Assembly (NCBI GenBank): GCA_963922205.1
Contig: CAWUHX010000003.1
Location: forward strand, 3,079,335-3,143,334
Source of the DNA: Romanomermis culicivorax
Lineage: Eukaryota > Nematoda > Enoplea > Mermithida > Mermithidae
DNA length: 64,000 nucleotides
Reading direction: 5' to 3'
Under the pieces are notes generated by a model. That model did not search any database and was not told the origin of the DNA. It worked only from the letters and a program-made list of their open reading frames with translations. Shown here piece after piece: positions 21,501 through 56,283 of this stretch. Each line of letters opens with the position of its first letter. Position 1 is the stretch's first letter. Both the position numbers and the translations under genes were made by a program.

Positions 21501-24500
21501 ATGTGCTCCGACGAGACATGGAAGAAATCATGCTTAACTCATAATATTCAACTAAAGACAAACATTCAATACAAAATTGATAACTGCAAAAAGTTGGTCC
21601 GTCGCTCTAGATGAACAGCTTTGATTGACAGATCAACATGACAAAAAGCAGATTCGGCCCGCGAGCTGGGACCCGTATCGTTTGTCTAGTCGTATCAATT
21701 GTCCTTCTGCATCAATTATCTCATCGACTTTAATTGGGTGTATTGATTGTGCAACCGAATTTGGAGTGGAAGTATCGATTTTCCTCCATATGATAATGAG
21801 GTGTATCGACTATTCCATCTGGACTGCACATAAAATGCCCAAACACAAAGTTTTCTGTTATTGAGAAGTACAGTTTTTGTTCTTAGCAATTAATTATTCA
21901 AAACTAATTACATATAAGTTAATTAGATGGATCGACTGACACAAGTTCAATTACTGCAGCTTTGAGGATGTAGCATTGGATAATCTTTGAACAGTGATAG
22001 ATGTTGAGATGCAGTTCCATTTATGTATTATTTTATTTAATTCCCTAAGAGTATTGCTATTTTGGTCTTACTGAACGTATAATTCTTGATGTCTGATAGT
22101 TTTCACTGCAGTGAGATACGTACGTGCACATCATGGAAATTCTTCTGGGGATCAGACTGGATAGTAGGTGGGATGGAAATTATGTTTCTTTTTTGATAAC
22201 AAAAAGAAAGGTTTTCTAACATCCAAGCAGCATATTCTTCCATCTATATTTGTCAAATACGTGAAATTATTTGCATGATCAGCACTTTTTAAAGTTTTAA
22301 TGTTTCTCTTGGAATCAAGTATGCTTTGTTTAGAAAAATCGCCCAACTGTAGCATTATTTTCATTCACATGACGTCTTTCTCTTCATTTTTTCCTTTTTT
22401 TCTTCATCATCTATTTGATCAATGCTGAGGAGTAGAATCTGCTGGGGTCAGAAAGAATCTGCTGAGAGTCAGTCAAAATCTACTGATGGCCCAGACCCCC
22501 CCCCCATGTACACGTATGATGGATATCTTCTGAAATTTTAAAGTCTCACCACATTGATCTGTTGCGGTTTAATTAACAGGAGCTTTGCTATTAGCCCAGA
22601 CAAACGATTATCCAAATGAGTTTATCTTCCATTTTATACTATAACTTGGACAATAGATTCTTACTGCGTACAAATTAGCGTGCATTTTCTTTCGCTTATT
22701 ATTACAAATTTCAAATGAATGAGTACAATGTCATTTCTTGAGTAATTGCAAGTTTTTCCGGGTACTGAGTCTTCTTATTTTAATTAGTTAAGTTAATTTG
22801 CAAGTTGTTTAACTTATTGCAGGATTATCTTATAGTTTTGAGAAAACCAATCATTTTGTGTGTGCATCTGAGAATTATGACAATAGAAACATTCCTTGGG
22901 ACAATCGATACACCCCATTATCATATGGTGGGACAATCGATACTTGCTGACCGAGTCGGTATTATTTTGACTGTCAATCAAAGCTCCTAGCTTAAGCTAC
23001 AGACAGACTTTTCGTGCTAGCCCTCCCCAAAACAAAATGTTCAAAAATTTTTCACCGCCGTGTTGAGTGGTGAAAAATTGAGAAACAACGCAAAAATTTT
23101 TCTCCGTTCTTCAAAGCCTGATAAAATTCCGACGATTGTCCATGAAAGCAAAAAATAAGATATCTTTCACTGAGTTTACAAATCAAAATAGAATGGTATT
23201 TGGGGGCATGGAATTTATTCATTGTTTCCTTTGCATCATTTTCTGTTGTTTTTTTGCTTCTCTTTGTTCTTCCTAAACATTTTTCTCGTTACTCATGTTG
23301 TCATAAAAAAGCAAGCTCAAAAATCGAAAACATTCTCCGAATGTAATTTTTTCGTTTTTTGGTAAATTTATAAACATAGATGTATTTAGCTAATTTGAGG
23401 TCAATGTGGCAGCTGTCAAAAATGCTATACTGTAGATCAATGATTCAAGGTCCTCAAACTATCATTTCCGACCGAAAATAATTAAAATTTTCACATACAA
23501 GTTTTTTGATGCATGCTCGCTTTCTACCTTCCTGGTCCATAAAAATATGTCTCGTGAATAAAAATCATGGGTTAAGCTTCGGATCTTTTCTGAATCAAGT
23601 ACTATAGCCAGAACTCTGGATTTATACAGGGTGAGCCAAAAAAAGGCGACCGGTGCTGACTTCGATAACTTTCGAACGAATGAAGGTTTTATAATGCAGA
23701 TTGCTGCGTTAGAATGCCCTGTTTGTCTTTGTTGCAAGGCCAAAATTTTATGCTCCCAGCATTTATGGTTACTGTACAAACAGAAATTTAGTAAAAGTGA
23801 TCATTTTTCAAAAAGTAAAAAATGTGAAATGAAAGTAAAAGTTTTGAAATGAAAGTAAAAGCTGCCCTATTGTGAAAAAAAAGTTTTGTAAAGCTGTTTA
23901 CACACAGCAATACTTTGAAAATCACCCAGATTTGTAAGTTACACGTAATTTAAGGTCAGCAACTTCTTGTTTCAATATGATCAAAATTTCGCCAAAATCA
24001 AGAGCTTTTGTTATGAAATTGGAAAAAAAGCAAAATTGAAGCAAAATCAACTCCGTCATTGACCAGATCGAAAAACGATTAAAATTATTGGTGAAACAGA
24101 AATTAGGACACATTAAAGCGGCTCTCTTGTAGTTTCAAGCTGTTATATGGTTCTTATGGATCTATTGTGCTTTTCTGTTGTGAAACATGTTGATTCTGTA
24201 AATTTTTAAATATTTATTAGCAAAAAAATCGACGTTTAGTATTTTTGATTTTAGTCAGTCAATATTCAAGAAATCTGGATGAACTTAGCGGTCTTTATGC
24301 CAGATGTTTCATCTATTAACGACAGGAAACCGCATTAAAAAAGCTTCACCCGTTCGGAAGCTATAAAAGTCAGTACCGGTCGCCTTTTTTTGGCTCACCC
24401 TGTATAACCTTTATGCCTTACGAACTGTGTGCCAGTAAGTGTCCAAAATTCGATGTCCTGCCTATGCAGTGTGAAATAAAAAGTGGAATGCACATCCGCC

Positions 24501-27500
24501 TGTTTTTTTTTTTTGTAAAATGCCTGCAAAACGATGTATTGACAATACATAAATTATTTTTTTGTTTTTACGAGTTTCTGCTATACTGTAAGCCATTCGA
24601 GGATATGATTAGAAAATTTTTGAGCGCACTTAACTATCTTTAACAAATTTTTGTTAAAAAAATTCTACATTAATAAATTTTTGTAAACAATTTAGCGACA
24701 GTACTTCTTTTTACCATTTTTAAATTTACGAGTTGTTTATGAAAAACAGACCATGAATATTTTCTGCCTGAAAATCGCCCACATGCATTATGTCGTAGAA
24801 AGTTTTCCCAAAAAAAAATGATTAGGGTTAATTGATTGATAGTTTAACGACTTTTCAGTTTTATATGATACTTTTTGTCATTTTCTGCCGAAGCACACGG
24901 TATATAGAACTGAAAATTTGCGAACCCACTGACCTTAATCATTAAAAATGAAAATTCTATCGTAATACTTTTGTTTAAACCCTCTTGAAGGTAGTACTAA
25001 TTTCTTATCCCGTTCCGTATATGGGATGACCCAAAAATAAATCGCCGGTCTAAAAGTGCTACAAGTAACCAGAGCACATCAAGATTCTATTTTTTTGGCG
25101 TTCGATGGCAAAATCAATCTAATATCATACTACAGGGCGGAATGAATCTTTCAAATACACAGTTTGATCAGAATGGCTTGAATTAAAATCACTCACTTTT
25201 GCGAGTTTCTAGAAATTTTTTTGTCAAGATTCCGAGAAAATCGACAAGTCTAAGAGAAAAAACTGTTGAAAGGTCTTGTTTTGAATAGAGACCCCTTCAA
25301 TGAGGTCATTATTTATGATTTTAATCAGTTTTGTACAAATTTCAGATCATGCAGCAGTTTTAATTGAGAAAATATTAAAAGTTCAGAGATGCGCAAATTT
25401 AGCTGAAAACAGTATCTTCGTTCATGATTATCAACATTGAGGATTTTGGCTCAGGAATGAGATGTTCACTGTGTATTCAATTTTTTCATTAGGGGTGAAG
25501 CATTTTTGCAATAAGCTTACGTTGTAGTTGATTAATTCTTGAAAACTTGAGTAAAAATCAACACGACAAAGCAGTGGTTTAATATGAATGAATACACCTC
25601 ACGCTGTACTGTAGATCAAGACACGAATTTTTAAGGTGATGGCTATGAAGCGAACTCAACTTGAACTCTATCTTATCTGTTGGAGCACTATAAACTTTAA
25701 GGTGTGTCGTTTTTTTCCGGACCACCCTGTACAAGCATTTTATAAAAAAGAAACTGCATAGAATGATAGAATTTCGTGCATCTTCAAGATTCAGGGACCT
25801 GGAGTTAATAGTATTGCAGAAAACTCAAAGTCGTAGTTTTCAGGTAAAATTCAAGGGTGCTGGTCAGCTTGGATAAAAAATTTTACACTTAAATTATTGA
25901 AAAATGTTCTATAGATTGATCAAACTTTCACGTAATTATCCTGAATTTAGTGCTTTGTAAACTATGAAAATAAGTTATTTTCGCTCTGTTCGTTTATTTT
26001 TCATTTAAATTGATATTGATTTGATACAGAATTCCATGGCATATCCGATTGGAAAAAAATTCCATCAAAATAGTTCAGGTAGAATGTTGAGAGTGGCCAC
26101 AACCACCTCAACTACGAATTGTTGCAAAAAGAGGGCACCTTTCCCGTTGCTCGGTTGCAGGCGCGTAGCCAGGATTCTTTTTTGAGAGGGTCAAGACTAA
26201 AATTTTTGATTTTTTTGGGAAATAATGGCAAATGATGTATTTTTCATGTATCTCAATGCTTCCTATTGAGTTTGTGCACATCGAACTTTATCAAGCATAA
26301 CAAATACTAGTTTATTAGAAAATGCCCCGATGGGGCAGAAAAAAGGAGAATATACTTGCTTCGACAGTTGCCATGCTAGAAAAAGAAGTGGACTAGATTT
26401 TTGATAACTTGGGTCAAAGTTGGAAAAAATTCACTTCCTTTATATTGGATTTTCATTCTATCTCAAAAAAATTTTCTATGTCTGTGAAGAAGTATATTCT
26501 GCAGCATCGTGCATTTTGTCCTTCCCCTGGCATTAACTACAGCAAAACTTTTCTACATGAAAATTATATGCACATGATTTCAAATGTAAAGAAATGGTAA
26601 ACCAATAGCTTTCTAACTCCCGACGTATTCAAAACTCTTGCCTCTCACACTAGCTGAAAAATAGTGAGGCAGGCATATTATAGTCATTTTCAGAACTATA
26701 AAGAAACCTGAGGCTGGTTGCACTAACCCAACATGAGGATAATCTCAACATCGGGACTAAATTGCTGATCCAGAATTGAGCTAATCGCAATGTCCAAATT
26801 GTTCTCTTCCAGTGCACAAACAATACTCACTTCAGGATTAACTAATACTGAGATTTGATTTCGCGTTTGGAAATTGCAGACATTTTAATATTTTTTCGCT
26901 TTAGAGATAAGAAAATTATTCGAAAAAGTTAGTGCAACCCAGGGTTTTTTTGTCGGAGGCAAATGAAATTTTTTTGGGGCAAACGAAATTGGAGTAGTCA
27001 TTTGTACATGTACAAACGGCTCTTTCTCATTTAGGGAGGAGATAAGGTGGAGAAAATATGCATTTTGGTGCATTTTAGAAATTCATAATCTCAAAATTAA
27101 AAAAAAAACTTTAATAATCATCATTAGGTAGAATATACTTCTTCACAGAAATAGAAAATTTTTTTGAGACAGAATGAAAATCCAATATAGAGGAAGTGAA
27201 TTTTTTCCAACTTTGACCCAAGTTCTCAAAAATCTAGTCCACTTCTTTTTCTAGCATGGCAACTGTCGAAGCAAGTATATTCTCCTTTTTTCTGCCCCAT
27301 CGGGGCATTTTCTAATAAACTAGTTCACCTCTTTTTAGTGGGCCTCAACCATGCACGAAAACTTTCATAGAAGCACATTGAAGTTTTAAATTTGGTCATC
27401 AACTTCAAAAAAACAATAAAAAAAACTTCAAGCAACGAAATCTCACCTCATGCAAAAGTAAAGGATGTGTAAACCGCATAGTACTTTAAAAACGTTGTAA

Positions 27501-30500
27501 AGATACTGAAAGGTGACCATATCTATTGAATTCCTCATGGTTTAGAATCCTTCAACCCAAAAATCGCAGAAATACCTTTGTCTACAGAAATGACTTTATT
27601 TCGTGTAAACTGACTCTGTCCATTGAATTCCCCATGGTCAGAAACATCTTCCCTCAAAAATCGCAGAAATACATTTCTTTACATTCAATATGAATTAGTG
27701 TGTAAAGTGATCACTTTCATTAAATTCCCAGTGGTCGAAAACCCCTCCCACAAAAAACTCACGAAAGCAGGCTTGGTTAAATCCGGAATAATTTTTTTTG
27801 TGTAAACTGACACATCCGTTGAATTCCCCGCAGTCAAAAACCCCTTCCATAAAAATCACGAAAATATGCTTGTTTACACCTGCGATAGTTTTTTTTTGTA
27901 AGATGATCGCATTCGTCAAATTCTCCGTGATCGAAAACCCCGCCCACCAGGAAATGACGAAAATACCTTTGTTTGCAACCGGGATAAGTTTTTGTGTAAA
28001 GTGATCGCATTCATCAAATTCCCCGTGGTCGAAAAACCGCTTCCAACAAAAAATCACGAAAATACGTTTGTTTACACACGGGGTAATTTTTGGTGTAAAG
28101 TGATCACATTCATTGAATTCCTCGTGGTCGAAAATCCCCTCCTCAAGAAAATTACGGCAGTACGCTTGTTTACACCGTGGATAATTTATTTGTGTCAAGT
28201 GAGGACGTCTATTGAATTCCCCGCAGTCGAAAACTCCCTCCACTGAAAAAACACGGAAATACGCTTGTTTACACCCGGGATAATTTTTCGTGTAAAGTGA
28301 CCGCGTCCATCAAATTCCCAATGGTCGAAAACCCTTGCAGCCCAAAAATCCCAATAAGGCTACAGGTTTATTTGAAACTGCTAAAAAATTAGTAGTGCAT
28401 TATGCTGCAAAAAATTATTTTTTTGAACCCACAAGTATTATATAACAAAATTGGGGAATTTGGCGTTTTCCGGGACTTTGGACAACCATATAATTGAATT
28501 GAGGCCATATTTCAAAAAACAAAAAATTCGCATTTGAGATTACACCCCCAAGATGCTTAGGCCGAAGTATGGAGGTTGGATATGGCACACCGATTGCTGG
28601 GCATGTTGGAACTGGGGGGGCCTTAAAAAGTGCGTTTTTTACCTGTTTTTGGGGCCCCACCGAGCACCACTTGCAGATAGAGGGGAAATGACAAAAGGCA
28701 CCCCATAGTTTGCCCCTATGCCCGATATTATGCAAAAAACCCGAAGGTTCTAGCTCTTACCGTTTTGGCTCTAGGGGGGGGACATGAAATTTGGGGGCCA
28801 AGTATATTATAGGTTGACGCTGTCGCGCCACCTATGATATCCTACGATTATTTACTGCAAGATCATTTATAATTTTTTCAACATTTGCCTTCTGAATGCA
28901 ATGAACGTTCAATAACACCCAATTCGAGCATCGCTCTTAAGTCATGACAAACCGAAAACAGGTTTTAAGATGCTTCAACCTTGAAAAAAGATCATTCAGA
29001 TGATGAAGCTTCAAGAAATTTTGATTTTAAGATGTCTAAAAATGCATTTTTGTTGACAGGTGCTTCATTTATGTTTTTTGTGTTTTTTACATTCCAATAC
29101 ATCTGGAGCAAGTAATTTACAAGTCATAATTATACATCAATCAAAATAGACTGTTTTTAAATGTTCATTCATTCAAATATCACTAATTCCGTCGCGGAGC
29201 GCCGGAAAATTTCAGCATTTTAATATTTTAGAATGCTAGAAAATGAATCTTTTCAACATTTATTCTTTAGATGAAAGGTCTAAATTTTAGATGAATTCGA
29301 AAATAATTTCCAGCCGACCAAACTCTAAAATTCGAAAATTAGGCGAGCAATCAAAAATTTGGAATCTTCAACCAACAAGAACTTCTGCTATTGTCATATG
29401 CTGAAAAAATTTTCAGCTTCTTGTTTAAAATTATAGTTACAAAAAGATAGAAGAAAGCAAATTTGACCTCTAAAATGCATCAAATTCATCTTTTTCATGT
29501 CAAAATCAACCCACAATCAGGGTATTTTTGAACAGGCTAGGTTGCAATGTGCCACTTGGGGAAAATTTTTGGTTGCACAGATAAATTTTTGGTTGCTCAC
29601 TCTAAAATTAATAAATTTGCTTAATTTTATCGGAAAAACCACCGTGAACTAGTTTTCTTGTATTTCATTCGATGCGCGTCGGTTTTAGGCTCTATGACTA
29701 GACTAGAGTAATCTGTTTGGAAAATTATGAAGATCACAAAAATACCGAGAAAAATGTTAGTTTTCATCAAATTCGTCAAAAAACAATACAGGATCAAACA
29801 TTTATCCATAATATGTTGATAATTAGAACATATAAGCACCAACCAGAATGAAATTTTTAACCGAGCTCTAAAATAATATAAAAAATTATAAAGGGATTGA
29901 AACCCGGCGCGAAGCGCCGGAAAATTTCCACTTTTTCCCCATTTTAGAACGCATAAAAATGCATTTCCGGACAGAAAACCCTATAACTTAATCAAAAGGG
30001 CAGTCAGGCCTCAAGTTGCACTGTGCAACTTGGCAGAAAAAATTTGGTTGCACAGCCCGAATTTCGGTTGCTGCCCACAATTTTTCACTTTTCCAAAATC
30101 CTTTTCCCTCAAAAAGTTTTATTTGTGGAAAAACAGTGGACCGATCAATCCGAAGAATTATACAATGAAATTTGGTGCGAAGCGCCGATAAATTTTCGGT
30201 GTTTCCTGATTTTAGAGCCCGCAAAACACTTCAAATCAAAAATTGAATGAAATTAACTATAATTGACTGAGGTAGGAACAAAAATGGCTCCTAGACACAA
30301 AACTTCACGAGCCATTTTAAATTTTTAGGGGACCAGGCCCCTAATATGACTAAAAAAGCCTAAATAAAAATGTATATGTTTAGGAAAGTCGGGATCACGA
30401 AAAGATTCTGGAGAAATAATCGCGAAAAATCTCGATTTTCGTCAAATGCATAAAAGCAATACAAGAAGATCAAACATTTATCCATAATATGTTGACACTT

Positions 30501-32339: not shown

Positions 32340-35055
32340 AAATTCTTCAGTAAGATAATATGGTTTCCACATGGTGAAAGTCTTACGGTTACCAGTCCGA
32401 CGCACAACGAATCTTTTGCTAGGAAATTTGCATAAACTTTGTGATTATTGAGGAACTAGAGTACCAACGAGAAAAAGGCTTTTTGGTGTGCAGTAAAATT
32501 ACTCATTACTATTAAATTCATCATTGTCCCGAAACTTTATGTTAGACTTGAGAAATTTAACAGTAATACCCTATTATCATGACGTAAAAGAGTCTCTTAA
32601 ATTCCCAAACTGACTCATTTTATATTCCGTGTAAAAATGACGACATAAACTTTCAGTGACTATTATAGTCCAAAAATGAGCTCTCAGTACACAGACACCG
32701 CTGTTATAGTTCTACTGTAGCTTAGCTATAACTTCCGGAATCTTGTGGAGTTTAGATCAGGTGTGGGACGATGTTTGGGTTAGATCAGATTTCTGATATC
32801 TGAATCTTCTTAATGAAATAAATTCTGGAAATATTATTTTTAATCGTGTTTTTATGCTTGGTGAAACTACACACAAATTCATCAACTTAAATTCATTTTC
32901 CTTAAAACTTCCTGCACATGCATGTCCTGTGACATTGGAAACTTTTTTACATTGGAATCTTACGTAAAAAGATTTGAAATCGTTGAACAATTTACAGTTG
33001 GCTCCAGAAAGTAGTGGTTAGTGGAACATTGTGGAAGGAAAGTCAAACAGTACAGTGCTGGCAAGTTAAATACGTATCTGATTTCCTGGCCTGAAAACGG
33101 TTCCAAATAATGAGAAGTTTCTATGGTATAATAAACAATATGTCATACAGGACTGGTATTTGATTGTGTCCCGTTAGCTCGACCATCGACTGAAGTTATA
33201 AAAAAATTCCCGTTAGCTCGACCGTCCCCTTACCTTGACTTTCCCGTTACCCCGACTGTCCCGTTACTAATGTCATTTTTAAAAACATTAAAAATTTTAT
33301 AACGGCGACTGTCCCATTACTTCGATTATGTTCTGAATGTTCTGACGTTACAAAAAATTACAGAGTTAAATTTACAAAATTTATCATTCTCCCACAGGTT
33401 TCCCTCAAATGATTACACCATCAATATTTGGTAAGAAATCAAGAAATTACGTCGGATTGTTCGCAGTTCTTGTGAACTGAACAGAAGGTTATACTTGAAT
33501 TTTTGTCTGCATGGAGAATTATGCTCGAACAACGTTTTCCATACAAAATACAGAAAAATTGATTCATTAACATGTGAAAGTACGGCTCAGCCAAATCTTT
33601 TCTACCTTTTCAAGAAAAATATATCTGTTAGATTGGCTGATGGATCGACTACTGATTGTTGTCAGTGAAGAAATGGTGATTAACTCGGGTGTTTTTATGG
33701 TTTTACGGTGAGTTTTGTAGTTATAGGGATGATGTGACAATATTTTAAAAATATGAAGCCTTAATTGTATTATGATGCCCACGATACAAAAGACAAAATG
33801 TTTTCCTGCACACATGAGTTAGGTTTCGTTGGTAACTGGAGGGAAGACGTGCAGAGTGATAATATTACCACAAAAAAATTCAAATTTATCCAACGTCAAA
33901 GTCAAATTCATAATATACGTGACGGGACAGAGCAAAAAAAGATTTTATTTTTTGTAAAAATTCATTGGTCGATGTAACGGAACGGTCGAGGTAACGGGAC
34001 AGTCGAGATATCGGGACACAACGGGATGTCGGAACACAATGGAATATCGGGACAACTTGATATTACAATTCTTTGAGAATATTTCCTGCCGTAAAGCTTT
34101 GTGAAACGTATTTTCGTCGCTTTTCAATACCTTCAGGCATTTTATAAAAAAATTATGAGGACTTGAGAATTATAAATTTATAGTAGTTAGTACGAAATTT
34201 TAAAAAATTGCACTTCAGGACTTTTTTTTGCGCTTTGTAATGAAATGACAACTCCCATCTGAAAACTAACTTCCATATGTGCTGAAAAAATTTCAAAGAT
34301 ACGATTCTATAGATCCTTCTACCTTCATTCAATGAGCTTATAATTTTCATTCTGAAATATTTACGCTGATCACAATTCTATTCTCCGAATGCAAAATGCA
34401 ACTATTGGGCTTTCTGACTTTGGACAAGGCAAGTTTACAGTCGAACCCGACGCCGCTGAACACCATATTCAAATTTACTACTGACTTTTGCAAAATGCAA
34501 TTTTTTCATGTCACAACTTCTCCGTTTGTTTTTTAACAATAATTTTAGTTGGGTTCATCAAATTAGAGCTGTTTCCAAGGTTAAAAGTTATTTCTCAGAA
34601 TTTTCACTTAATTTTTTTGCTTTCTACATCAGAAAATCAAAATTCCTTCCAGTAAAAACTTGCTTGAACGCATTGAAAAGAACGAGCATCCTCCCACGGT
34701 TAACTTTAGCCACCCATGATCCCACTTTCGCAATCGCGCTTATCTGATCAAGAATACTTTCCCACTTCTTTCCATTTTTAGATAAGCATCGTTCAGAAAT
34801 TATTTTTTCATCATTTACGCATTTTTGGTTCTGTTTCGTAACATTCCAGCTCCATGTTCATATGAATAATCTGCCTACAAACCACTATCCTCCTCGGAAA
34901 AGTTGAAAATGGAATGAGATTTTTATCTCGATGTTGAATATTTGCCGAAACATTTTCGAGACTCATGAAGAAGCAAAAAAATTATGTCTTCCGAGCAGTG
35001 AACACGACGTAAAGCAAAAAGTATAATAGCTGACATCAGAAAGCACGAGTTTTTT
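32340..35055. other. Intergenic interval downstream of the Ly6 gene
   Basis: Contains the putative polyadenylation signal near 32,817 and a 17-bp-repeat element at 33,164-34,058. Otherwise no coding frame with recognisable features. Confidence 0.6.
33164..34058. mobile_element. Inverted-repeat element with 17-bp subterminal repeats (CCCGTTACCTCGAC type)
   Basis: The left array (about 33,165-33,275) has consecutive 17-mers TTCCCGTTAGCTCGACC, GTCCCCTTACCTTGACT, TTCCCGTTACCCCGACT and GTCCCGTTACTAATGTC. The right array (about 33,971-34,055) is the same repeat on the other strand: GTAACGGAACGGTCGAG, GTAACGGGACAGTCGAG, ATATCGGGACACAACGG. Another GTCCCATTACTTCGATT lies inward near 33,310. About 0.9 kb, no recognisable protein. 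Confidence 0.75.
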
Positions 35056-35695
35056 TTTCTTTTCTTTTCTTTTCTTTTCTTTTCTTTTCTTTTCTTTTCT
35101 TTTCTTTTCTTTTCTTTTCTTTTCTTTTCTTTTCTTTTCTTTTCTTTTCTTTTCTTTTCTTTTCTTTTCTTTTCTTTTCTTTTCTTTTCTTTTCTTTTCT
35201 TTTCTTTTCTTTTCTTTTCTTTTCTTTTCTTTTCTTTTCTTTTCTTTTCTTTTCTTTTCTTTTCTTTTCTTTTCTTTTCTTTTCTTTTCTTTTCTTTTCT
35301 TTTCTTTTCTTTTCTTTTCTTTTCTTTTCTTTTCTTTTCTTTTCTTTTCTTTTCTTTTCTTTTCTTTTCTTTTCTTTTCTTTTCTTTTCTTTTCTTTTCT
35401 TTTCTTTTCTTTTCTTTTCTTTTCTTTTCTTTTCTTTTCTTTTCTTTTCTTTTCTTTTCTTTTCTTTTCTTTTCTTTTCTTTTCTTTTCTTTTCTTTTCT
35501 TTTCTTTTCTTTTCTTTTCTTTTCTTTTCTTTTCTTTTCTTTTCTTTTCTTTTCTTTTCTTTTCTTTTCTTTTCTTTTCTTTTCTTTTCTTTTCTTTTCT
35601 TTTCTTTTCTTTTCTTTTCTTTTCTTTTCTTTTCTTTTCTTTTCTTTTCTTTTCTTTTCTTTTCTTTTCTTTTCTTTTCTTTTCTTTTCTTTTCT
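35056..35695. repeat. Perfect (TTTCT)n pentanucleotide array, ~128 units
   Basis: About 640 bases of uninterrupted TTTCT with no sequence variation visible. It is followed by several hundred bases of degenerate T/C-rich sequence to about 36,100, probably decayed repeat. The apparent Lys/Glu/Arg open frame across it is an artefact. Confidence 0.98.
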
Positions 35696-38164
35696 ATATT
35701 TTGTCTTGTCTTTGCTTTGTGTACACTCATTTCATTTTCTATATTATTTCTTCATTATTGCTTAATTCTTTTGCTTTGGATCTGTTTTACTTTTTCTCTT
35801 GCGATTATTTGTTCTACTTCACTTTTTCCGATTTTATCTTTCCCCTTTCATTTTATCTATGTTTGTTCCTGTCTTCTCTTTTTTTTCTCTTTCTTTGCTG
35901 GACCATTCTTCACTCTGTCTTTTTCCTTTTAATTTTTTTCATTTATCTGTTTTTTCTTTTTTCTTGTTTTTATTGTCATCTTTTTAATCATTTATTCTTT
36001 CTGTCGTTTCTCAATGTTTTATCCTCCTGATGTTTCTGTTTCTTCCTTTTTTACGCATTTCTTATTTCTTTTTCCCTTCGTTTTTTTCATGTTTTTCAAA
36101 AAAATTTTCTCAGACTGGCTTCCTCAATTTGCCTTCTTGTTTCTCTTCTCCCTTCTTTCGTTCGAATAAAATTTTCTTCCTCATTGGTTCTACTTTTTTC
36201 CCATGTTATCCGATTCAAACTTGTCCATGCAATTTTTCTCAAGCCAACGCGCCCCTTTTTTCGTCAAAATATTCTATTTTCGGGTTTCTTTCTGAAATAT
36301 GCAAATTAGGGACGCCGTTTCTTCTTCGGGTGGACAAAAACTTAAATTTAGCTTCGTTTTTAAGGGGTATTCAATGATACATACGGAAAGTATTTATCTC
36401 GACGTTCGAATGGACGGCGCCGGGCGGGCGGCCCCGGCGGTCTCTAGTCCGCCGGAGTTTGTTCGAAAAATTCCTTTCTTTTTATGCCTATTGATGATGA
36501 AGTTATGTTATAAGAAAATTTCTACCTTTAGATGAATGAGCTATTGCTTATAGAAATATGTATATTTTTCGCTTTTTGAATCTGAAATCGATACTTTTTG
36601 GTCACATATCCATAGATCTCAAAAAATTTCCGTTTTATTCTCAAGCTACAGTAATGTTTCAAGATGCGCCTTCCATATCTCCGGAGGCGGTATTCTTCAG
36701 TCACGTGACTCTTTTTATTGGTCCGTTCATTTTCTTACTGTAGCTTGCCAGCCTCGGGGCATAAAAAGCGTCGAAATGACCATCTTCTATCATTCTTATA
36801 GTGACTTTGAATTTTTACACTATATTCCCACTTCATTTGCATATTGATAATTTTCCACGTGTATGAAGAATTATGTATGTTTATCTACAGGCTAGCGAAG
36901 CCACGCTCTGTACGTTTGTTTTAGTGTAGCTTTTAATCTGTTTGGACAGCTGGTAAGCTTGATTCCACGACGCGATTGAGACAGACTTTTTTTAGGGAAG
37001 AGCTTTTGTTCACAGTTTTAAAAATGTTAGACGATCATTTTAAAACTTTATTTTTGTGTCTTTTGAGATGAAGGTTCATGAAGAAAGAAAAAAAGCTAGC
37101 AAGAGATAACAAAATAAGAAATAAAAATATAGATTTCTATTGTTCGAACGAAATAAATTAAGAAAATGTTCTACAAAATGTACTTCTGTAGCCTACTTTC
37201 GCATCTTGCTGACGTCATACTGACCAATGTCGAAGAATTTTGGAATCCTGTAGAATTTGTAATATTTTGTCCAATCGGACCATATATTGGAACAAAAGAA
37301 TTGCTCGACTTTCTGATCAGAACGTTTCGTGTTACCGACTACATTGAAACAGAGAAAAGCGTGACTATTTGTCAGCGATCAAAACTTTTTCCAAAGCGAA
37401 GAATTTTTATACAAATTTTTTTATTCCAGAATTTTCTAGAAACTGAACTTTCTATGAACATTGAACTTTCGATTTTAGAAGAATGATATTTTGATATTCT
37501 GCAGGGCATAAGTTCCGAAACGAGAACCAAAAAGTATATTTGACATCAGCAACTTGCGAAGAACATATGTTCTCAAGTCTAGAATTTTCGGGACAAACAA
37601 GAAAGAAGAAGAACAGAAAATAGAAAGCATTCAGTTCAGAAGTTGAATTATCAACAAACAAAATACTTGATGTACTCAACAGTGAAATAATACCTGAAGA
37701 ATTGCTTGCTGAAGCTATTTTCCACATCTCGCTGATGTCATACCATACTGAATCATTTTGAAAACTTTTCCATGTAGAATTAAACCATAAGTGCCTTTTA
37801 GGACCTATATATTTTCCTGTGCGCATTATAATTATGCAAATCAGTTATTCATGAATTCTCTCGCAAACTTTGAGTATCCAATTTTCGCAGAACTACAGTG
37901 AGAAATTTATATAAGGCTGGAGATGATGCGGGGCAGAAAATTAAGATTGGAGACAGCAAGTTGTCAAAAGCAGCGTAATATTTAAGTAGATATTTTGTCA
38001 TTTTGAAAAGGACTTGGAAAAAACAGGAACACAATAGGAGACATGAATCTGGAACACAAACAGATGACAAAATAGAAAAATACTATTTTTCAGAAGCTGA
38101 ACAGCGTCCAAAAATATGGCCATGAACGGATTACCGAAGCCCTTTTGCATATCTTGATGACCTA

Positions 38165-39478: not shown

Positions 39479-40515
39479 CGTCGCAACTTGGCGCCTGTCT
39501 TACTTTGGCGCCCATCTCACTTAAACTTTTTATATCCTAGCATAAAAGCTATGCGGTTTTATTTATGCAAATTTTACGCACAGTTGTCCTGAACCTGAAG
39601 GGTCATTTATACTTGCCTTTTCCAACGGAACGGAACAGAATGCAATCGACACAATAACGAAAAAGAAATTTTCGTTCCGTTCGGTTTGTCTGGAGGTTAC
39701 TGTTGATCATTTTCTAGAAAATTACAGTTATCCTCTCCAATCGAAAGTAGTGGATTTTCAGGCTGAACATTTCAAGCTGTTGGCGATCCGTTCCGTCGAA
39801 AAATGCAAGTATAAATGGCCTTAAGTCTGAGCCTAAGCCAACATTTCTAATGCCAAATATGTCGTCATGCTAGTCTAGAAAATGCGGAGAATTTCGCTGT
39901 TCTATTTTAAATACTTTCTTACTAACAACATGTTAAGTACTTATGAGGATAGTCATTAAGTTGAATAGAATTCAATGCGAAAATAGAATAATGTGGTGGT
40001 AATCACCTCTTAGAATGATTGTTGAAATAGGTGAGTAAGATGTGGCGCTAAGGTGGAAGGAAGGCACTCGAAGCTTTTTGTTAATGTTTGTTTTGATATT
40101 TTTGTGGTGATTGTTTCGACTACTGTAGCTGGAAATCAATACAGCTTTTAAGCTGCAGTTGATTAACCCATTCAAGCATGAAAACTGTTACTGGAATTAA
40201 AATTATTTTACTGTACTTCTTTATCTTGGATTTCTTCGTTTTTTTTCGTTTCATTTCGGTTTTTAAATCTAACCTTGTTTGATTGTGTTTTTATCGTTCT
40301 TTTGCTTCTTGTTCGGAGCCAGTTTTTCAAGAAGACTTAATCTGTGATTGTGTCCGAGCTTGGCGTCTACCCTAACTTGGCGTCCGTCCTAACTTAGCGT
40401 CCCTCTTGACTTGGCGTCCGTCCTAACTTAGCGTATTAGTCCCATGTTGGCGTCCATTTTATGTCCTAACTTGGCGTCTGTCCTAACTTGGCGTTTATCT
40501 CAACCTGGCGTATTA
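39479..40515. repeat. 17-bp repeat arrays (ACTTGGCGTCC type)
   Basis: The main array at about 40,355-40,515 has about nine 17-base units: GTCCGAGCTTGGCGTCT, ACCCTAACTTGGCGTCC, GTCCTAACTTAGCGTCC, CTCTTGACTTGGCGTCC and further copies, with one insertion. Two more units (GTCGCAACTTGGCGCCT, GTCTTACTTTGGCGCCC) lie at 39,480-39,515 in the same orientation. A weak inverted unit may exist near 40,036 (TGGCGCTAAGGTGGAAGG). Boundaries of a single element are not established. Confidence 0.65.
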
Positions 40516-42370
40516 TATGCTTTGGATCAAAATGAACCAAAATTCACTTTTAATTCATTATTGAAAAACATGCATTTATGAGTAATACACATCAACATTA
40601 CAGTTGTAGGAGTTCTTCAATATACATCAATTTTATTCATACTTTTCTATATATAGAAAACAATTTTCCAATAAAGAAAGCACATAGTTTCACGAAGAAA
40701 CATTGCATTTTTGCATGCAAACTCGTAGGTTCCCTGAATTTCGAAAACTGAATAAATTATCTATGTTCTCAAAATCTAACAGACTTCCCGTAAAAATGTT
40801 CATTTGAATTTGAGTTTTTAAGTATAGTTAATCCATTGCGCTGTTCTCTAAAATACGGGTGATTTTGAAGAAGCAAAGAGAATCGAGAGAAGCGAAGAGA
40901 TCGCCCGATAAATCGTTGCAATCCATTCGCATTTTCTTCTTACTTCTTTCTTTTTTCCTCATTTCTCATAATTATTTTCATTCATTTTTTATTTATTCGT
41001 TTAAACATTTTTTTGAAGAGTATGTAAAGGGGGAGGGCCCGAACAAGACAGAATAGAGGACAGAATAAAGGAAGGGACGACATGACTCGACAACAAATTC
41101 AAAATAATTTCGTGATAAACTAGGGATCAACTCTCAGCTCCATAATCCCAGAGTTCTGAGCTGCTTTGCTGCTCCGTTGCTCTGGTAGAGCAGCTATGGA
41201 TAAAGGTGATCTGGAGCTGCGTAAATTTTTGTCAGTCAGTTTACTGTAGTTTACATAGCTGAAAGAAATGCGACAAATAAGTTCCTTGGTTAATTATGGT
41301 TGATTTTTCTGACTCCTGTCTTGCTACTTAATTCCCTTGTTATTCCTATGGTGCTTGGTTGGATAGGGCCGCGGCTCCACTTGATTCTCCAGTATGGTAG
41401 CTGATTTTTCCCATTCATCTTTTTGTCTGTTTCCGTTTCTCATTTCTTCCTCTTTGTATTTTCTTTTCCAGTTTCTCTATTACTCTCTTTTATTCATTTT
41501 GCATCTGGTTAGTAGGGTGATAAGTACGATGAAAAAATCTGGTTAGTAGGGTGACAAGTGCGATGAAAAAGTTTCAACGCAAAAACCTTTATGGAATTCT
41601 TCACGATTCTGTGAAAAATTGTATATACTCGAAAGAAAAATTATGTAGAGGAAAGCGTGGAGAATCGGAGCTGAAAATTTCAGTTTATCAAGTTCAGAGA
41701 AGAAAAACTGTTCCAGCGCGGCTTTTCAATTGTTCGAAAGGGGCATTCCTTAAGCATATATTTTCAAAACCGCGATTTCCACTTTTTCCGTTAAAACCAA
41801 TAAAACATTTTTTATCTCCCTAAACAACATTCCCACGCGCGGAATTTTGTATACTGTAGATAAGTTTACTTACCACCGGTCGTTTTATCTTCACGATCAG
41901 CTAAAAGCTAGTTTATGAAATTGAGCAACAAAAAAAGTTGGATCATTGTTCATTTGCTTACTTTTTTCCATATTTCCGAAATCGCGTTTTTCAAATTTCC
42001 GTTTTTGCGGATCCCATTTTTGACGTCAGCGAAATTGTAAAATGATTAAAAAAATCTCAGATTCGGCATTTAGAAATGAGCAATTCCGTTTTCATGAGGA
42101 GCATTTTAACACATTCTCCGCCTTATCATCTATTTCGCACCCTTTTTGTTTTTTGATTTTTTTCGTATATTACAGTTTGGCTCTGTAAATGTTTTCTATT
42201 TATTTTATTGCGTTCTCTCCACTGTTCTACTTCATTTTCATTCTTTCTTCATTTCTTTCATCAATTGTCGATTTCCGTCACTTCCACAATTCAATTTTTC
42301 TCAAAATTTTGAATTTTATTACGAGAGAAAAGACGGAAAGTAAACATGTTGTCGACGTAGACTAATTTCT

Positions 42371-45300: not shown

Positions 45301-48300
45301 TCGTTGACGCAAGTGCACGACGATCTTTTCAAATCATTGCGGTACTGTAGGCAAGCGGGCTTCATACTGTTAAAATATCATACCATGTGAGAGCGTTACA
45401 AAAAGGAATAGGTCACTAAAACTCTTTCAGACATGCATATTTTGTGTAAAAATATGATCACGTGATCTGGAGTCCCACAATTTCATGCTTACCCTGATGA
45501 GCAAACACTCACTGCGTCGCAATGCTTCCTAAAAAATTTGTTCGATTTGACATTAAACAGGTTTTCCGAATAGTGAGCCTTTTTTGACGAATCCTGATGG
45601 CATTCGTGGAGCTTGTTGTGCACCATGGCTCGGTACACGGTGGTTTTAAGTCTGAAAACGTACTTTAATTAGTTTGAATGTGAGGGAAGCAAAATTTAAT
45701 AACAAGAAAAAGTTTTTCTGGTTTAAAGTGGATATTCGATAGTCCATTAGATTTCATCAGATTATGGTCAGAGTGACCGTTTGACGAAATCAAATTCCCA
45801 GTTTTTTCCGGTTAATCAAACACTCAAAAGCATATCCTTACTTCTTAATATCAAATTTGACTCAAAAATAATCTAAAATGCTTTAAAAAACATATTTTGT
45901 CGGTTTGCAATGGTACTGCCATTGTTTTTAGCTGAAAAATACTGTTTTTCGCAAGAAACATTGCCATTTGGCACAGGATTTTTTTTCGCACAGTGCGGAC
46001 CTTTTTTGGGCAGTGCGGAAAAACTTTTGGGCATTTTCCGCACAGAACGGACATTTTTTCGGGCGTTTCTACTGCTGGCATTGATGAAAAGGTGCATTTT
46101 GGTACAATTTAGATGGTTAAAATCTCAAATTTTTCCGGCGCTCCGCGCCGGCAAAGAAAATAATTTATAATATTAACTACAATTTAGCTGAAGCGCAGCC
46201 AAAAAAAAGTTTACTTTGATTTCTCGGTTATGCTTGATTGTTTGCGTCAATCTTCTATGTCTCTGCTAGAGTGAGTAAAACTCGTCAATTTAGTGTAAAT
46301 TGGAATTTTTATATGAATTGGTTGATTTTTTCCACATTTCCCCACACATTTATTTAATACCATCATTTTTCTTGGAAAAATCTTAACCGAAAGTATTACA
46401 AATTACCTCTAGAATACATTTTCCAACATTTCAGTAGCTCCTTTGTTCAAAAATTCTCTGGTGTGACGCGACGGAAGTTAAGCGTGCATGGTTTTCATGA
46501 TTTGAACTTCCTCATCTCATTCATCAATTGGTAATCTTCAGTATTTCATTCGGATTTTGTTGAAAATTGAGATTTTATATTGATCTTCATGAATTCTTTC
46601 TCATGTTTTCTGAACTTTGTGAACACAAATTTTGTCATTGTGAAACTACACGATTTTCGACTGAAAACGCAAATTTTTTATTTTAGATATAAGGGTTGAA
46701 AAGACTCATTTTGCAGCATTCTATAATATCAAAAACTAGAAATTGAATCAATTGAAAAATCAATTGAAATCTAAAAATCTTCGGCTCTAATCACAGAAAT
46801 GACAGCAGCAACTATTAATTTTGCTCAATCAATCTAAAATAATGTTTTTGAGCTAGAAAAACAGATACTTTATTTGATTTTCTTAGCAATCCATAATTTT
46901 CGCTCATTTCAAACATTTTTCAAATGATTTAAACTTCGAGCGGAAAAATTTTCTTGTGCGGAAAAAATTTTGGGTCATTTCCGCACGGTGCGGATGAAGA
47001 CGTGCGGAAAAAACCCTGATTTGGCAAAAATAGTCGAAACCCTTTTAATCATTTTTTTCTGCATGCGTCCGCCTGCGGGTTGCGGAAACGAGTCAAAATT
47101 CTTTTTGCACAAAAAATTTTTCCGGTTCCAAGTTAAAATTATGTAAAAATGGGCGAAAATTGTAGATTCCCGAGGAAATCTTCAAATGTTGTACCTATTT
47201 TTCTAACAGTGACATTCTTCAGAATTATTGAGTGAAAAAGTAATTGCAACTGTCATTTCTGTGATCCAGGCTTTTTGGTTCCAAAATCACGAGCCAAACA
47301 GCTCATCTTAGGCCAAAATTTTTGGAGCCAAATTTAAATGTTAGAATTCAAAATGAAAGAAAACCGAAGTGTAGGCTTTTAACTCACCGTTGAATGTAAT
47401 AATTGTATGGATATTAAATCAGTTGGCACGTACTCAAAAAATGACTGTTCAAAACTTTATTTCCAACCAGAGTTTTTTGTATAAGCCTCTTTGTACCAAT
47501 ACAAAGATCGATCGAAAAATAGATTGTGTCTCTTTACAGCCACCGTCCCACAATAGCCACCGTCCCACTATAGCCACCGTCTCACTATAGCCATTATGTC
47601 GCTATAGCCACCAAATTATGTACAGATATCCCACTATAGCCACCAATCAAACAACATGTGAATGTCGCATTATAGCCACTGTCTCACGGTAGCCGTTAAA
47701 AATTATTCCAAAAATAAAAGGTTAATATTTGGTTTTTCAATATTTTTATCAATGCTAATTTGCTAATTGGAGGTAATATTTAATTGGTGACCCTACTTGT
47801 ACGAATATGTAATGGTATTTTCTTGTTTGTTTTTGTTATTAATAAAATAAGAGTTTAGCATGTTGACAAGTTTCTATATCACCCTCTTGCTGAAATCTCC
47901 CACTTTTGTGTTAGTCTCTATTAAAAACTGCAAATACAGGCATCTAAATACATGACAGTATTCAAGAATTCTCATATAGTCCTTTAGGCTTTTACCTAAT
48001 TGATATTTGTCTCTTTTAACAATAAAAGGAAATTAAAGTAGCACACACAGGCATGGTTGTCTATTATTTTCTAATGCGTTTTTTGTGTTAGCCGGTGGTT
48101 CAGGGTCTGATAAAGAAGAGTGCCCACCACAGATATAGGCAGCTCCAGAAATCGCGAGGTATTAGGCAGGTGGGGTGTAAAACTCGGCTCTTCATTCAGG
48201 AAACATACTTGCTCTGAAGGAGGGTTTTTTGAACGTCCTTATGGTCTGCGTCGTTTTGGACGCAAACTGAGACTTCCTTCAAAAGTTGGCCAAAATACCT

Positions 48301-50999
48301 ACGGGATCTCCAGCCAATTCAAATCTACTGCTGGTCCATCCATACCCTTCCTATGACATATAAACACCCGTAAAATCGTTAGTGCCTATTGCATGACAGC
48401 GGCTGTAGTGAGATAGTTGCCAAGTGACGCCTTGCAATAGTGAGACGACCATTAGTAATTTGGTGGCTGTAGTGAGAAAAGCGAGGCGGGCCCAAAAAAT
48501 CTTTGTACGAAGAATTTTTTTGTATGCAAAAAACCACAATCTTTTATGTATTTTTTCATAAACCTTGACAGCACTTGAGTTCATGTCCTTCATAGCACAG
48601 AAGTACAGAAGTACAGGGTATTGAAAAATTCAGCTTCTGTTCTTGTTGTCTCCTGTCTTTCCGGTGCGTAGTGCCGAAAAATTTTTATTTTTTAATTTTT
48701 TAATTTTTTTAATGCTGTAAAATCAATTTAAGGATAACTTATTCAATAAACATAAGGTTGAAATTTTCTGTTCAAAAACACGTCTTTCTCATTTTACAAA
48801 TTAGAAAAATATACTCACACTTTCATAAGTTCGAAAAACTTTATTTATGAAAATCATTTCCACGATGCTTACGAATTCAAACTCGGCATCATGTTTAAAA
48901 TTAAAATTATAAAAAAAGTTGAAAAAATTAAAATTTTGACTTTTAAAATGCGCCAAAATTTATCTTTATCATTTCGAACCCCCACATTTTTTCTTTTTTC
49001 GAAAATTTCCTCTATAAAAAAGGATTTATTAAAAAATCCTAAAAAGTACGATTAAGGAAAAAACAGTGTGTCGACCGACCCGAAGAATTAGAAAATGAAA
49101 TTCGGCGCGAAGCGCCATAAAATTTTTCGGTGTCTTCTGATTTTAGAGCCTGCATAATCCTCACTCTAAATCTGAAGACCTAAAATTTAAGGAGCCATTT
49201 CCAAATTTTTAGGGGTCCAGGTACCCTTAGATGACTAAAAACGCCTGCTACTAAATACTTCGTAAAAAACAAACTCACGCATCTTGCTTTTTGATGAGAT
49301 TCTCATCAAAAACCGGCATTTTCGGAAATTTCATGTCCAGGATGCCCATTTTGGCGGCCACACAGGGTTTAATTTCGTCCAGAAGGCTTTCGGCCAACGT
49401 TTTCTTCAAGCAAAGCCCCGCGTTCGCATTTTTCGACGACGACGATACGTTGAACAAAAGATCGCGCAAATAGGCGGCGGCAACCGTCAGCATCGGACTG
49501 CCGGCCATGGGACCTCGAGGTCCGAAAAAGTCCCCGTCGAATGAATCGGGGTTCAAAGTGCAGGCGCTGGTTAGAAAAAAGGGAAAAAGGAGGAGTCGCT
49601 TGAATTTAATTAAGAACGTAAAGATTATGGGAAATGATTCGCGGGGATCACACTTTCTTCTAGTCTTACTGTAGCGTTTGTAATGGATGTAATGCTCTTC
49701 AGTGCACTACTCAACAGTTATGGAAGTAAGTTGAAATAAGGAAAAAGCACTAGACATTTTACTTTAATCAATGAGCAAAATTTTCCCGACTATAAGCGGA
49801 AAAGATCAGCTGATAATCCTCGCATACGCGTCAAGTAGAATCTACTTTTTTGGTTTATGCGGCTGCACATTTTAAATTGAAAGGCATTAGAAGTAATCTA
49901 AATTTTATAGAAAGCATCATGTAAAAACACTCAAGTACAAAGTTCAATTTTTTTTTAACGTTCTGTAACATGATTCTGTATTTGTGCAGTCAACTATTTG
50001 ATCGAAATTAGAAGCGCTGAGCAGTGTTTTTTTAGTCGAATGACCTATTCTGGCGAAAAAATTGTTGGATTGGCTAACATTTTTGTTTTGGACAATTGGC
50101 TTAAAAATTTGGGTACTTTTCCGTGCTTTGAGTACAAATTTTAGCCATAGGCAAAAATTTTTTTGCCCACTTTGGCCATTTGACTAAAGACCTCGTGCTA
50201 AAAAAACAGTGGTGCTGAATCGAGAAGTCCAAAATAAAAACCGCAATCTCAGCCTGGTTGACATTTAAATCTTGGAAAGGCTATGTTACAGCAATTAGGA
50301 AGGATCTGAGGTCCCATTTCTCTGTTTATCAAAATCACAGTAACATCGCAGAACAAACCCAAAAATTGGATTTCAACTGAAACCATAAATTCGAAGCTTC
50401 TCATTCTTTGTTACTGTAGCTTTAAGTGTGAAATTTTTCGGTAAAAAACTGCAGGGGCCACAGATTTCTTGATTTTTTGGATCAGTTTTTTCGATAATGG
50501 GGACAAATTTCCCCAAATAATGGAATATAGAAGTTTGCAGGTAAAAGTAAAAAAATGAATAAAAATTCGATTCCCAAAGTAAAACGTTGACTAATGCTTA
50601 GTCCCGGTTTAATTATTTTCAGATATTTCTTTTTACAAAAAAGAACGGAACATTTTTTTGGAAAATTTGTATAATTTTTGTGATTCTGATCTTAATTTCA
50701 CCACTACTTTTCCCTTTGAACAGCACAAAATAGTACCTCGTCACTTGCGCCGGGTGCTTTCGCAAAGTTTCTTTAATCGAAGTTTTCAAATCGTTGGCGT
50801 ATTCGTCGGCTAAAATCGCGCTTTTTCCAGGGTCGTTGAATTTCTCTTCCAAACAATTCAACATTTTTTGAATTTCATTGTCACACGAGTATACGGTAGC
50901 CTCAGTTGCCATCTGAACATTTTTACTGAGAAAATTTTTAACTTTAACGTCCATTGTTTTTCTTACCATGAATAAGAACATAGCCAAAAACAGCCGCAT
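42371..50999 (-). CDS. Secreted 16-cysteine protein of unknown family, seven exons, complete
   Basis: Exons in transcript order: 50,999-50,967; 50,912-50,737; 49,566-49,279; 45,651-45,493; 45,366-45,205; 42,730-42,592; 42,472-42,371. The total is 1,059 nt, 352 residues, and all six junction phases (0,2,2,2,2,0) agree. The N-terminus MRLFLAMFLFMMATEA is a short signal peptide. The mature protein has 16 cysteines, an even number that would suit eight disulfides, in helical, charged sequence. Landmarks are CDNEIQKMLNC, SACTLNPDSFDGD, GLCLKKTLAE...IKPC, LHECHQDSSKK, HCDAVSVC, CLQYRNDLKRSSCTC, DFCVTILNKG, DACIKDQGEEE, ACDQLATI and the ending RFCHVEC*. I do not recognise the family; nematode secreted groups such as DUF19 or CPG4-like proteins are only guesses. 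Exon 2 uses a slightly unusual donor (AG/GTACTA). Introns 3 and 5 host a hAT and a Harbinger-like element. Confidence 0.8.
43437..44501. mobile_element. Harbinger-like element with long palindromic arms
   Basis: Left tip GGCCGGTTTCATCAAAGCGA and right tip TCGCTTTGATGAAACCGGCC are complements. Arms of ~330 and ~170 bases share repeated TTAAGCTGCAGCTCAGCTG modules and ATAATCGAACGAAAAG...TTTTCGG. The centre holds a broken SANT/Myb-like gene, typical cargo of PIF/Harbinger transposons. No DDE transposase remains and I could not fix a 3-bp target duplication. It lies within intron 5 of the cysteine-rich gene. Confidence 0.75.
43871..44172 (-). pseudogene. Frameshifted SANT/Myb-like DNA-binding gene of the Harbinger-like element
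   Basis: Read on the minus strand, three frames in succession give MSSDAEK, then CNWTDPQTKLLSELYLSH, then MDQFWKLVKKRKTCAWEEIT with SSLNAAFPR, then DSAKKLSNLKSAAKKATHDQ with KKWASATKGGPPPP and a stop. This order (aromatic-rich helices, K-rich helix, then GGPPPP) is that of the SANT/Myb-like domain of Harbinger accessory proteins and of NAIF1/zeste-type regulators. At least two frameshifts make it non-functional. Family from motif pattern; no search was possible. Confidence 0.65.
44879..45127. repeat. Well-preserved copy of the TAGTYTGTTTTT MITE family
   Basis: Begins TATAGTCTGTTTTTCTTGAA and ends AGCATTTTATAAAAAACAAA followed by CTATA, giving ~30-base inverted ends in a 249-base element. It abuts exon 5 of the cysteine-rich gene (exon edge 45,205) within the intron. 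Confidence 0.8.
45974..47018. mobile_element. hAT-type element, 8-bp target duplication ATTTGGCA
   Basis: Starts CAGGATTTTTTTTCGCACAG and ends CGTGCGGAAAAAACCCTG; the tips are complements of CAGGGTTTTTTCCGCAC. The same octamer ATTTGGCA flanks both ends (45,966-45,973 and 47,019-47,026). GTGCGGA subterminal motifs occur several times at both ends. 1,045 bases, no transposase. It sits in intron 3 of the cysteine-rich gene. Confidence 0.85.
47530..48485. mobile_element. Element with 17-bp subterminal repeats (CCCACTATAGCCACC type)
   Basis: The left array (about 47,532-47,700) has 17-mers GTCCCACAATAGCCACC, GTCCCACTATAGCCACC, GTCTCACTATAGCCATT and ATGTCGCTATAGCCACC, plus looser copies. On the right (about 48,395-48,480) the motif recurs inverted as GGCTGTAGTGAGA and GGTGGCTGTAGTGAGA. 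A 78-codon frame between (48,120-48,356 +, with RPYGLRRFGRKLRLPSK) is not recognisable. Confidence 0.65.
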
Positions 51000-56142: not shown

Positions 56143-56283
56143 AATTGACCGATTCTACCTGATCATCAGCTTGTTTATTAACTGTATGCATGATTCATGC
56201 GAGCAAAAATTAAAATTTCAGTTAATGGAAAAATTGGATAATAATGGAAATTATCGTTATAAATTGCAAAGATTTTAAGCAGA

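What the first reader, a model, noticed from the sequence alone, without database searches (positions are those of the whole stretch)
21617..48485. Four elements share a 17-bp subterminal repeat period and a GTCC anchor but not the repeat sequence
Arrays at 21.7, 33.2/34.0, 39.5/40.4 and 47.5 kb all consist of 17-base units. Examples are GTCCTTCTGCATCAATT, GTCCCGTTACCCCGACT-like, GTCCTAACTTGGCGTCC and GTCCCACTATAGCCACC. In three of the four, inverted copies occur at the far end, so these look like mobile elements with iteron-like ends. The constant period and GTCC start with an element-specific remainder suggest binding-site arrays that co-evolve with different DNA-binding proteins while the spacing stays fixed. 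I do not know a described superfamily with this signature. The period and motifs are seen directly; function is inference.
Basis: partly seen in the sequence, partly recalled or inferred. Interest (0 to 1): 0.75.

Follow-up and report, generated by a model that had tools for sequence, protein, structure and literature searches.

The report
17-bp arrays mark Mutator-like transposon ends
Repeat arrays in this eukaryotic genome are ends of several families of Mutator-like jumping genes, which keep a strict 17-base spacing while the repeated letters differ from family to family, apparently in step with the DNA-binding part of the transposase.

Summary
The arrays are real; at least three of the window's families (units at 33.2, 39.5 and 40.4 kb) belong to Mutator-like DNA transposons (MULEs). 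Copies elsewhere have an asymmetric 6-bp cap (left GATTGT; right CGTTGT, CGTTCT, GGGTGT, GGTTGT or GGGCCC), inverted arrays of 17-bp units usually starting GTCC, and 8-bp target duplications (10 of 65 end pairs perfect, 18 of 65 within one mismatch; shuffled 0.2% and 0.6%). One 3,814-bp copy of the 40.4-kb family has a perfect duplication and a MULE domain. Loci picked by transposase protein carry 17-bp arrays in 11 of 14 cases, with six different units. Unit and DNA-binding-domain divergence correlate over 8 families (16 of 40,320 permutations in best phase, 780 in fixed phase). The 33.2-kb element keeps a remnant of that domain. For 21.7 and 47.5 kb no transposase was found; they join by architecture only.

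Correction: 39.5 and 40.4 kb are two families in one orientation, not paired ends.

Closest known: Tm1 (root-knot nematodes) and Muta (Aedes). New: one rigid 17-bp period over at least 12 unit types. Binding is inferred.

The parts
21617..22985 (.). F1 element: inverted arms AGCTTTGATTGACAG/CTGTCAATCAAAGCT and weak 17-bp array of GTCC(T/G)ACTGCATCRATT type at about 21675-21745; a high-copy repeat is nested at about 22121-22518. Similarity to a copy (L002) runs beyond the right arm, so the true ends are uncertain; no transposase link found.
33162..34023 (+). F2 element: left end GATTGTGTCCCG with array of GTCCCGTTACCTCGACT (about 33168-33268), right inverted array (33968-34023) ending GGGACACAACG; no 8-bp duplication at this copy (5 of 8 bases differ)
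33531..33659 (+). Decayed remnant of the transposase N-terminal DNA-binding exon inside F2
   Evidence: HMM domain E 9.7e-9
34024..34056 (-). Further degenerate units just outside the F2 right end
   Evidence: sequence
39484..39524 (+). F11 remnant: about two units of GTCTTACCTTGGCGCCC type; a separate family, not the other end of the 40.35-kb element
40346..41515 (+). F3 element, truncated on the right: left end GATTGTGTCCGAGCTTGG and array of GTCCTAACTTGGCGTCC (40352-40511); right boundary is where similarity to other copies stops
47522..48493 (+). F4 element: left end GATTGTGTCTC with array of GTCTCACTATAGCCACC (47528-47698), right inverted array (about 48388-48482) ending GGGCCC; no transposase link found for this family

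Best explanation
The arrays are the terminal regions of several families of one clade of Mutator-like (MULE) cut-and-paste DNA transposons. Each end is a 6-bp cap followed by inverted arrays of 17-bp units. Transposase-bearing copies (about 3.3-3.8 kb, some with stop codons) encode an N-terminal zinc-finger-like domain and a MULE catalytic domain; the window copies are deletion derivatives or remnants that would be moved in trans. Shown: ends, 8-bp duplications, a MULE domain between arrays in F3 and F7, the 17-bp period across families, correlated divergence. Inferred: the N-terminal domain binds each unit, the fixed spacing sets the geometry of a multimer on the end, the unit sequence gives each family its own specificity, and F1, F4, F5 and F6 belong to the same clade.
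For: L080: F3 ends 3,814 bp apart, perfect TSD TATTGAAA, MULE domain inside (PF10551 E 1.7e-7, over cut-off). F7 copies L083 and L087: 17-bp arrays at both ends, a PF10551 match over cut-off within each, perfect TSDs GATTTTTT and GGGAACGG. 8-bp flanks: 10 of 65 identical, 18 of 65 within 1 mismatch; shuffled 0.24% and 0.56%. Protein-picked loci: lag-17 arrays in 11 of 14; other lags of 8-40, the harmonic 34 apart, in at most 2 of 14; none in 70 block-shuffled sequences. Of the 12 with the DNA-binding exon, 11 have the array; the two without the exon (L086, L089) have none. In the 5 fetched by that exon, 17 is the top lag of 10-30 in 5 of 5. Unit and domain identity correlate over 8 families: r 0.62, 16 of 40,320 (best phase); r 0.50, 780 of 40,320 (fixed phase). 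Pieces of the exon occur in 27 of 30 F2 loci and 6 of 30 F3 loci.
Against: 3 of 14 protein-picked loci (L086, L088, L089) show no 17-bp array; L088 has the exon but its best lag is 20; L089, of another MULE type, shows lags 15 and 19. No piece of the exon was found in any of 7 F4, 4 F5/F6 or 8 loci, so F1, F4, F5 and F6 are tied in only by caps, period and TSD (F1 by period alone). F2 copies show TSDs poorly (1 of 24 within 1 mismatch, none perfect). The zinc-finger assignment is below Pfam's cut-off (RYYR-CCHC E 0.03 and 0.15), and of 8 ORF pieces given to Pfam only 2 hit MULE; the three F7 pieces given hit nothing over cut-off. Correlated divergence also follows from common descent. No binding was measured.
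Confidence: 0.8

Rival explanations
1. The arrays are ordinary minisatellites that arise by slippage and happen to lie in repeats.
For: Unit number varies between copies, and one end can differ from the other.
Against: One period (17) over different unit sequences; inverted pairing with caps; 8-bp duplications; arrays in 11 of 14 protein-picked loci; 199 against 0 for the cap plus N13 pattern.
Confidence: 0.03
2. The arrays are anti-silencing or promoter-protein binding sites (VANDAL/VANC-like) rather than transposase sites; the spacing is kept by a separate regulator.
For: VANC targets are family-specific tandem motifs in noncoding DNA of VANDAL elements (PMC5735166, passages). The left array lies just upstream of the first transposase exon, where a promoter would be.
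Against: Arrays begin 6 bp from both termini and are inverted, as end-recognition sites are. No second gene was looked for, so this is not excluded.
Confidence: 0.2
3. Correlated divergence of unit and domain is only shared ancestry of whole elements, with no functional match.
For: Both travel in one element; only 8 families; the fixed-phase test is weaker (780 of 40,320).
Against: The period is kept while letters fall to about half identity between families; drift alone would be expected to break the period by indels (inference).
Confidence: 0.35

Closest known systems
Tm1, Mutator/Foldback family of Meloidogyne (PMC3169594, passages read)
   Same: Asymmetric short terminal motifs, then tandem repeats of variable number in inverted ends; Phantom-type MULE transposase; FLYWCH discussed; many non-autonomous derivatives
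   Different: Tm1 units mostly 14 bp (ranges 8-17 and 12-21 in two species) with one core consensus, TSD mostly 9 bp, 7-bp terminal motifs; here 17-bp units of at least 12 types, TSD 8 bp, 6-bp caps
Muta families of Aedes aegypti (PMC5225508, passages read)
   Same: MULEs with 8-9 bp TSD and subterminal tandem repeats; Muta1 is 3,198 bp and transposes in yeast
   Different: Repeats 9-15 bp, differing between families (Muta1: 12 bp plus 3-4 bp spacers; Muta5: 15 bp); no shared period across families in the passages read
Galileo (P superfamily) with THAP sites in tandem-repeat TIRs (PMC3688188, abstract and section 2.6)
   Same: Transposase DNA-binding domain shown to bind sites in terminal repeats; the authors suggest multiple sites give specificity
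   Different: Different transposase superfamily and long repeats
VANDAL/VANC of Arabidopsis (PMC5735166, passages read)
   Same: Family-specific tandem motifs evolving together with the protein that binds them, in MULE-type elements (that VANDALs are MULEs is recalled)
   Different: VANC is an anti-silencing protein, motifs lie in noncoding regions such as introns and upstream regions, no 17-bp spacing in the passages read

Membership tests
Mutator-like elements (MULE superfamily) | MULE (DDE) transposase domain inside the element | tested here: met
   For F3 (L080), F7 (L081, L083, L087) and F9 (L085): PF10551 over cut-off. Not found for F1, F4, F5, F6; F2 has only the N-terminal exon remnant
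Mutator-like elements (MULE superfamily) | Target duplication of 8-11 bp | tested here: met
   8 bp; 10 of 65 perfect, shuffled 0.24%: F3 5 of 26, F5 2 of 3, F6 1 of 1, F7 2 of 4, F2 0 of 24, F4 0 of 7 (3 of 7 with one mismatch); one 9-bp case, L012
Mutator-like elements (MULE superfamily) | Terminal inverted repeats | tested here: met
   Inverted arrays at both ends
Mutator-like elements (MULE superfamily) | N-terminal zinc finger (FLYWCH/CCHC type) | tested here: inconclusive
   RYYR-CCHC E 0.03 and 0.15, below cut-off; two cysteines invariant in 5 aligned exons
Tm1 | About 14-bp units and 9-bp TSD | tested here: not met
   17-bp units, 8-bp TSD
Phantom clade | Transposase groups with Phantom in a tree | not tested
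   No Phantom reference proteins were in hand
VANDAL | Encodes a VANC anti-silencing protein | not tested
   No VANC search was made

The most novel reading that the evidence does not exclude
One MULE clade has radiated within a genome into a dozen or more mutually insulated families by changing the variable letters of a 17-bp recognition unit together with the transposase's DNA-binding domain, while the 17-bp spacing is held fixed by the geometry of the transposase multimer: a natural set of orthogonal protein and array pairs.
Probability: 0.45. Interest if true: 0.68.

Novelty: new variant of a known kind. Interest (0 to 1): 0.52.

Why it matters
It turns a known but scattered oddity (tandem repeats in MULE ends) into a rule that can be tested: fixed spacing, conserved core, variable middle. 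The many families give a ready series for reading how a zinc-finger-like transposase domain chooses DNA and how transposon families become insulated from one another. The cap plus 17-bp pattern also marks about 200 places in this genome at once.

Tried and rejected
Rejected: minisatellites; 39.5/40.4 kb as one element; a superfamily unknown to science; rolling-circle elements (the copies have inverted ends and TSDs). An SL1 RNA search meant to place the host as a nematode found nothing, and its 14 controls were silent too, so the phylum is not shown. One paper search asked for 17-bp units in nematode transposons and found 0 papers; the other searches did not ask about 17 bp, and the library is partial. 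A cap-free spacing test with CGACTGTCC pairs did not complete. Structure prediction was not tried: the transposases lie in loci of a kind its stated rule does not list.

Full report
Observation. TRF finds period-17 arrays at 33.2, 34.0, 39.5, 40.4 and 47.5 kb. At 21.7 kb the array is weak, but 17 is the best lag of 9-30 there and in a relative, L002. Three elements begin with an identical GATTGTGTC at 33162, 40346 and 47522. Inverted far-end copies exist at 21.6-23.0, 33.2-34.0 and 47.5-48.5 kb. The 39.5- and 40.4-kb arrays lie in the same orientation and have different units; I read them as two families.

Families in the genome. The window lies in a 359-Mb assembly. The F3 array search had 290 first-look candidates, of which 40 were scored; F2 had 226 (40 scored); F4 had 319 (40 scored). 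These counts are lower bounds. In the F1 search (3,920 candidates, 40 scored) most scored rows are a nested high-copy repeat. F3 copies have sharp ends: left GATTGTGTCC, right (reverse complement) CGTTCTATCC. F2 ends are GATTGTGTCCCG and CGTTGTGTCCCG; F4 ends GATTGTGTCTC and GGGCCCGTCTC. A genome-wide pattern of the cap plus GTCC at 17-bp spacing gives 199 matches against 0 reversed, and its first 100 listed places reveal further families, F5 (GTCCTTATTCCCCGAAC) and F6 (GTCCCGTTACTCCAAGT). With gaps of 4-24 allowed the total is 288 against 23; some of the rest are the second GTCC inside F3 units.

Target duplications. In F3, end pairs were found in 23 of 30 loci and 12 of the 23 passed a shift-tolerant test that about 1.6% of shuffled pairs pass. 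Over six families, end pairs were found in 65 of 76 loci; the 8-bp flanks were identical in 10 and within one mismatch in 18, against 0.24% and 0.56% of shuffled flanks. F2 is poor (0 of 24 perfect, 1 of 24 within one mismatch) and the window's own F2 copy has no duplication. The automatic pairing can pick a wrong end: for L070 it missed the CACCATAC duplication visible.

Transposase. The Pfam MULE family has 122 matches in the genome (248 candidates, 150 scored). By coordinates, one lay 2.4 kb inside an F3 left end; by a rough hand estimate such a coincidence was expected about once by chance, so I read the DNA. L080 holds F3 ends 3,814 bp apart with a perfect TSD and the MULE domain between them. 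I then fetched nine more of the 122, chosen because their profile match began near positions 25-32 as in L080. Six have 17-bp arrays (L081-L085, L087) and three do not (L086, L088, L089). Units differ: F7 ATCCCTTTTCCCCGACC, F8 about GGACCGGGTTGGCGAAA, F9 about (A/G)TCCCA(C/G)TATGTCGACC. L085 also holds an F10-type array, about GTTTCGATTCTCCGACT, at 138-229. Several of these matches contain stop codons, so working copies are not shown. Of eight ORF pieces given to Pfam, two hit MULE over cut-off (L080, L085); three pieces of L084 (F7) hit nothing over cut-off.

DNA-binding exon. The N-terminal exon of L082 (158 aa) has 150 scored matches of 775 candidates. All five have a 17-bp array as the top lag of 10-30, with units F12 GTACCRTTTGGCCGAAC, F9, F11 GTCTTACCTTGGCGCCC (two near-identical loci) and F13 GTATTCACTTGGCCAGC. 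Together 11 of 14 protein-picked loci have lag-17 arrays; no other lag of 8-40 but the harmonic 34 occurs in more than two; 70 block-shuffled sequences have none; in 14 window pieces of 4.5 kb lag 17 occurs in 3 (the window holds the arrays under study) and lags that are multiples of 5 in 2 each. A profile of the exon finds pieces in 27 of 30 F2 loci, 6 of 30 F3 loci, 13 of 15 of L080-L094 (six of these were its seeds), 0 of 7 F4, 0 of 4 F5/F6 and 0 of 8 loci, and in the window at 33435-33665 (E 9.7e-9). F2 and some F3 copies thus look like deletion derivatives; F1, F4, F5 and F6 are not tied to the transposase by sequence. Pfam gives only weak RYYR-CCHC hits for the exon.

Unit anatomy. Over 12 family units (typed by hand from inspection, F10 left out, F8 phase set by hand; for F1, F4, F5 and F9 they differ slightly from, or were not in, the majority consensuses) positions 1-5 read GTCCY, position 13 is C in 12 of 12 and positions 14-15 are mostly GA; positions 6, 7 and 9 vary most. 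Total information is 17.3 bits against at most 13.8 in 60 phase-optimised letter shuffles. Common descent can produce this.

Co-divergence. For the 8 families with both a unit and a domain, pairwise identities correlate: r 0.62, 16 of 40,320 permutations in best phase; r 0.50, 780 of 40,320 in fixed phase. The closest pair in domain (F3-F11, 66%) is also the closest in unit (82%). The F3 domain covers only part of the alignment. The test does not separate matched evolution from shared ancestry.

Comparison with what is known. MULEs with tandem-repeat ends are described: Tm1 (asymmetric 7-bp ends, about 14-bp units, mostly 9-bp TSD, Phantom-type transposase; PMC3169594, passages) and Muta (8-9 bp TSD; ten of twelve long-TIR families with 9-15 bp repeats; PMC5225508, passages). 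A MULE survey lists Phantom with TSD not indicated or 8-10 bp and no, FLYWCH or SWIM finger (PMC6446971, passages). Binding of a transposase domain to sites in terminal repeats is shown for Galileo (PMC3688188, abstract and section 2.6). Motif arrays evolving with their binding protein are shown for VANC (PMC5735166, passages). The families here that carry a transposase are MULEs by tested features, are not Tm1 by tested features, and their place relative to Phantom is untested. In the passages read and the listings I did not see one fixed period shared by many families with different units; only asked for 17 bp.

Mechanism. Most likely the N-terminal domain of a transposase multimer binds successive units, 17 bp or about 1.6 turns apart, from both ends, bringing the caps together for cleavage and 8-bp staggered insertion. 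Ends, TSDs and linkage are shown; binding, multimer geometry and family insulation are inferred.

Noticed in passing
window 27558-28334: Tandem array of about 97-99-bp units, six to seven copies, about 73-76% matches
   Followed up: no
window 35050-35718 and 56283-57241: Long near-perfect pentanucleotide arrays, (TTTTC)n and (AGAAA)n
   Followed up: no
window 22121-22518: High-copy repeat nested inside F1; most scored rows of the F1 search are this stretch
   Followed up: partly
window 23630-24400 and 25020-25735: Stretches bounded by GGGTGAGCCAAAAAAAGGCGACC-like and GGATGACCCAAAAATAAATCGCC-like inverted ends, resembling mariner-type MITEs (by eye, recalled resemblance)
   Followed up: no
window 30760-30834 and 30989-31062: Two tRNA-Thr(GGT) predictions in similar surroundings, possibly a tRNA-containing repeat
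   Followed up: no
L089 806-912 and 4323-4420: A locus of another MULE type shows lags 15 and 19 instead of 17
   Followed up: partly
window 449-1024 and 55453-55875: Ammonium transporter exon (PF00909) and collagen exon (PF01391); host phylum not established
   Followed up: partly
L085 138-229: A further 17-bp array with cap GATTGTGG and unit about GTTTCGATTCTCCGACT, a possible further unit type next to an F9 element
   Followed up: no
L002 189-448 and 1573-1833: 260-bp inverted repeats outside the F1 array, with flanks that match at 7 of 8 bases by eye; F1 may have long outer arms unlike the others
   Followed up: partly
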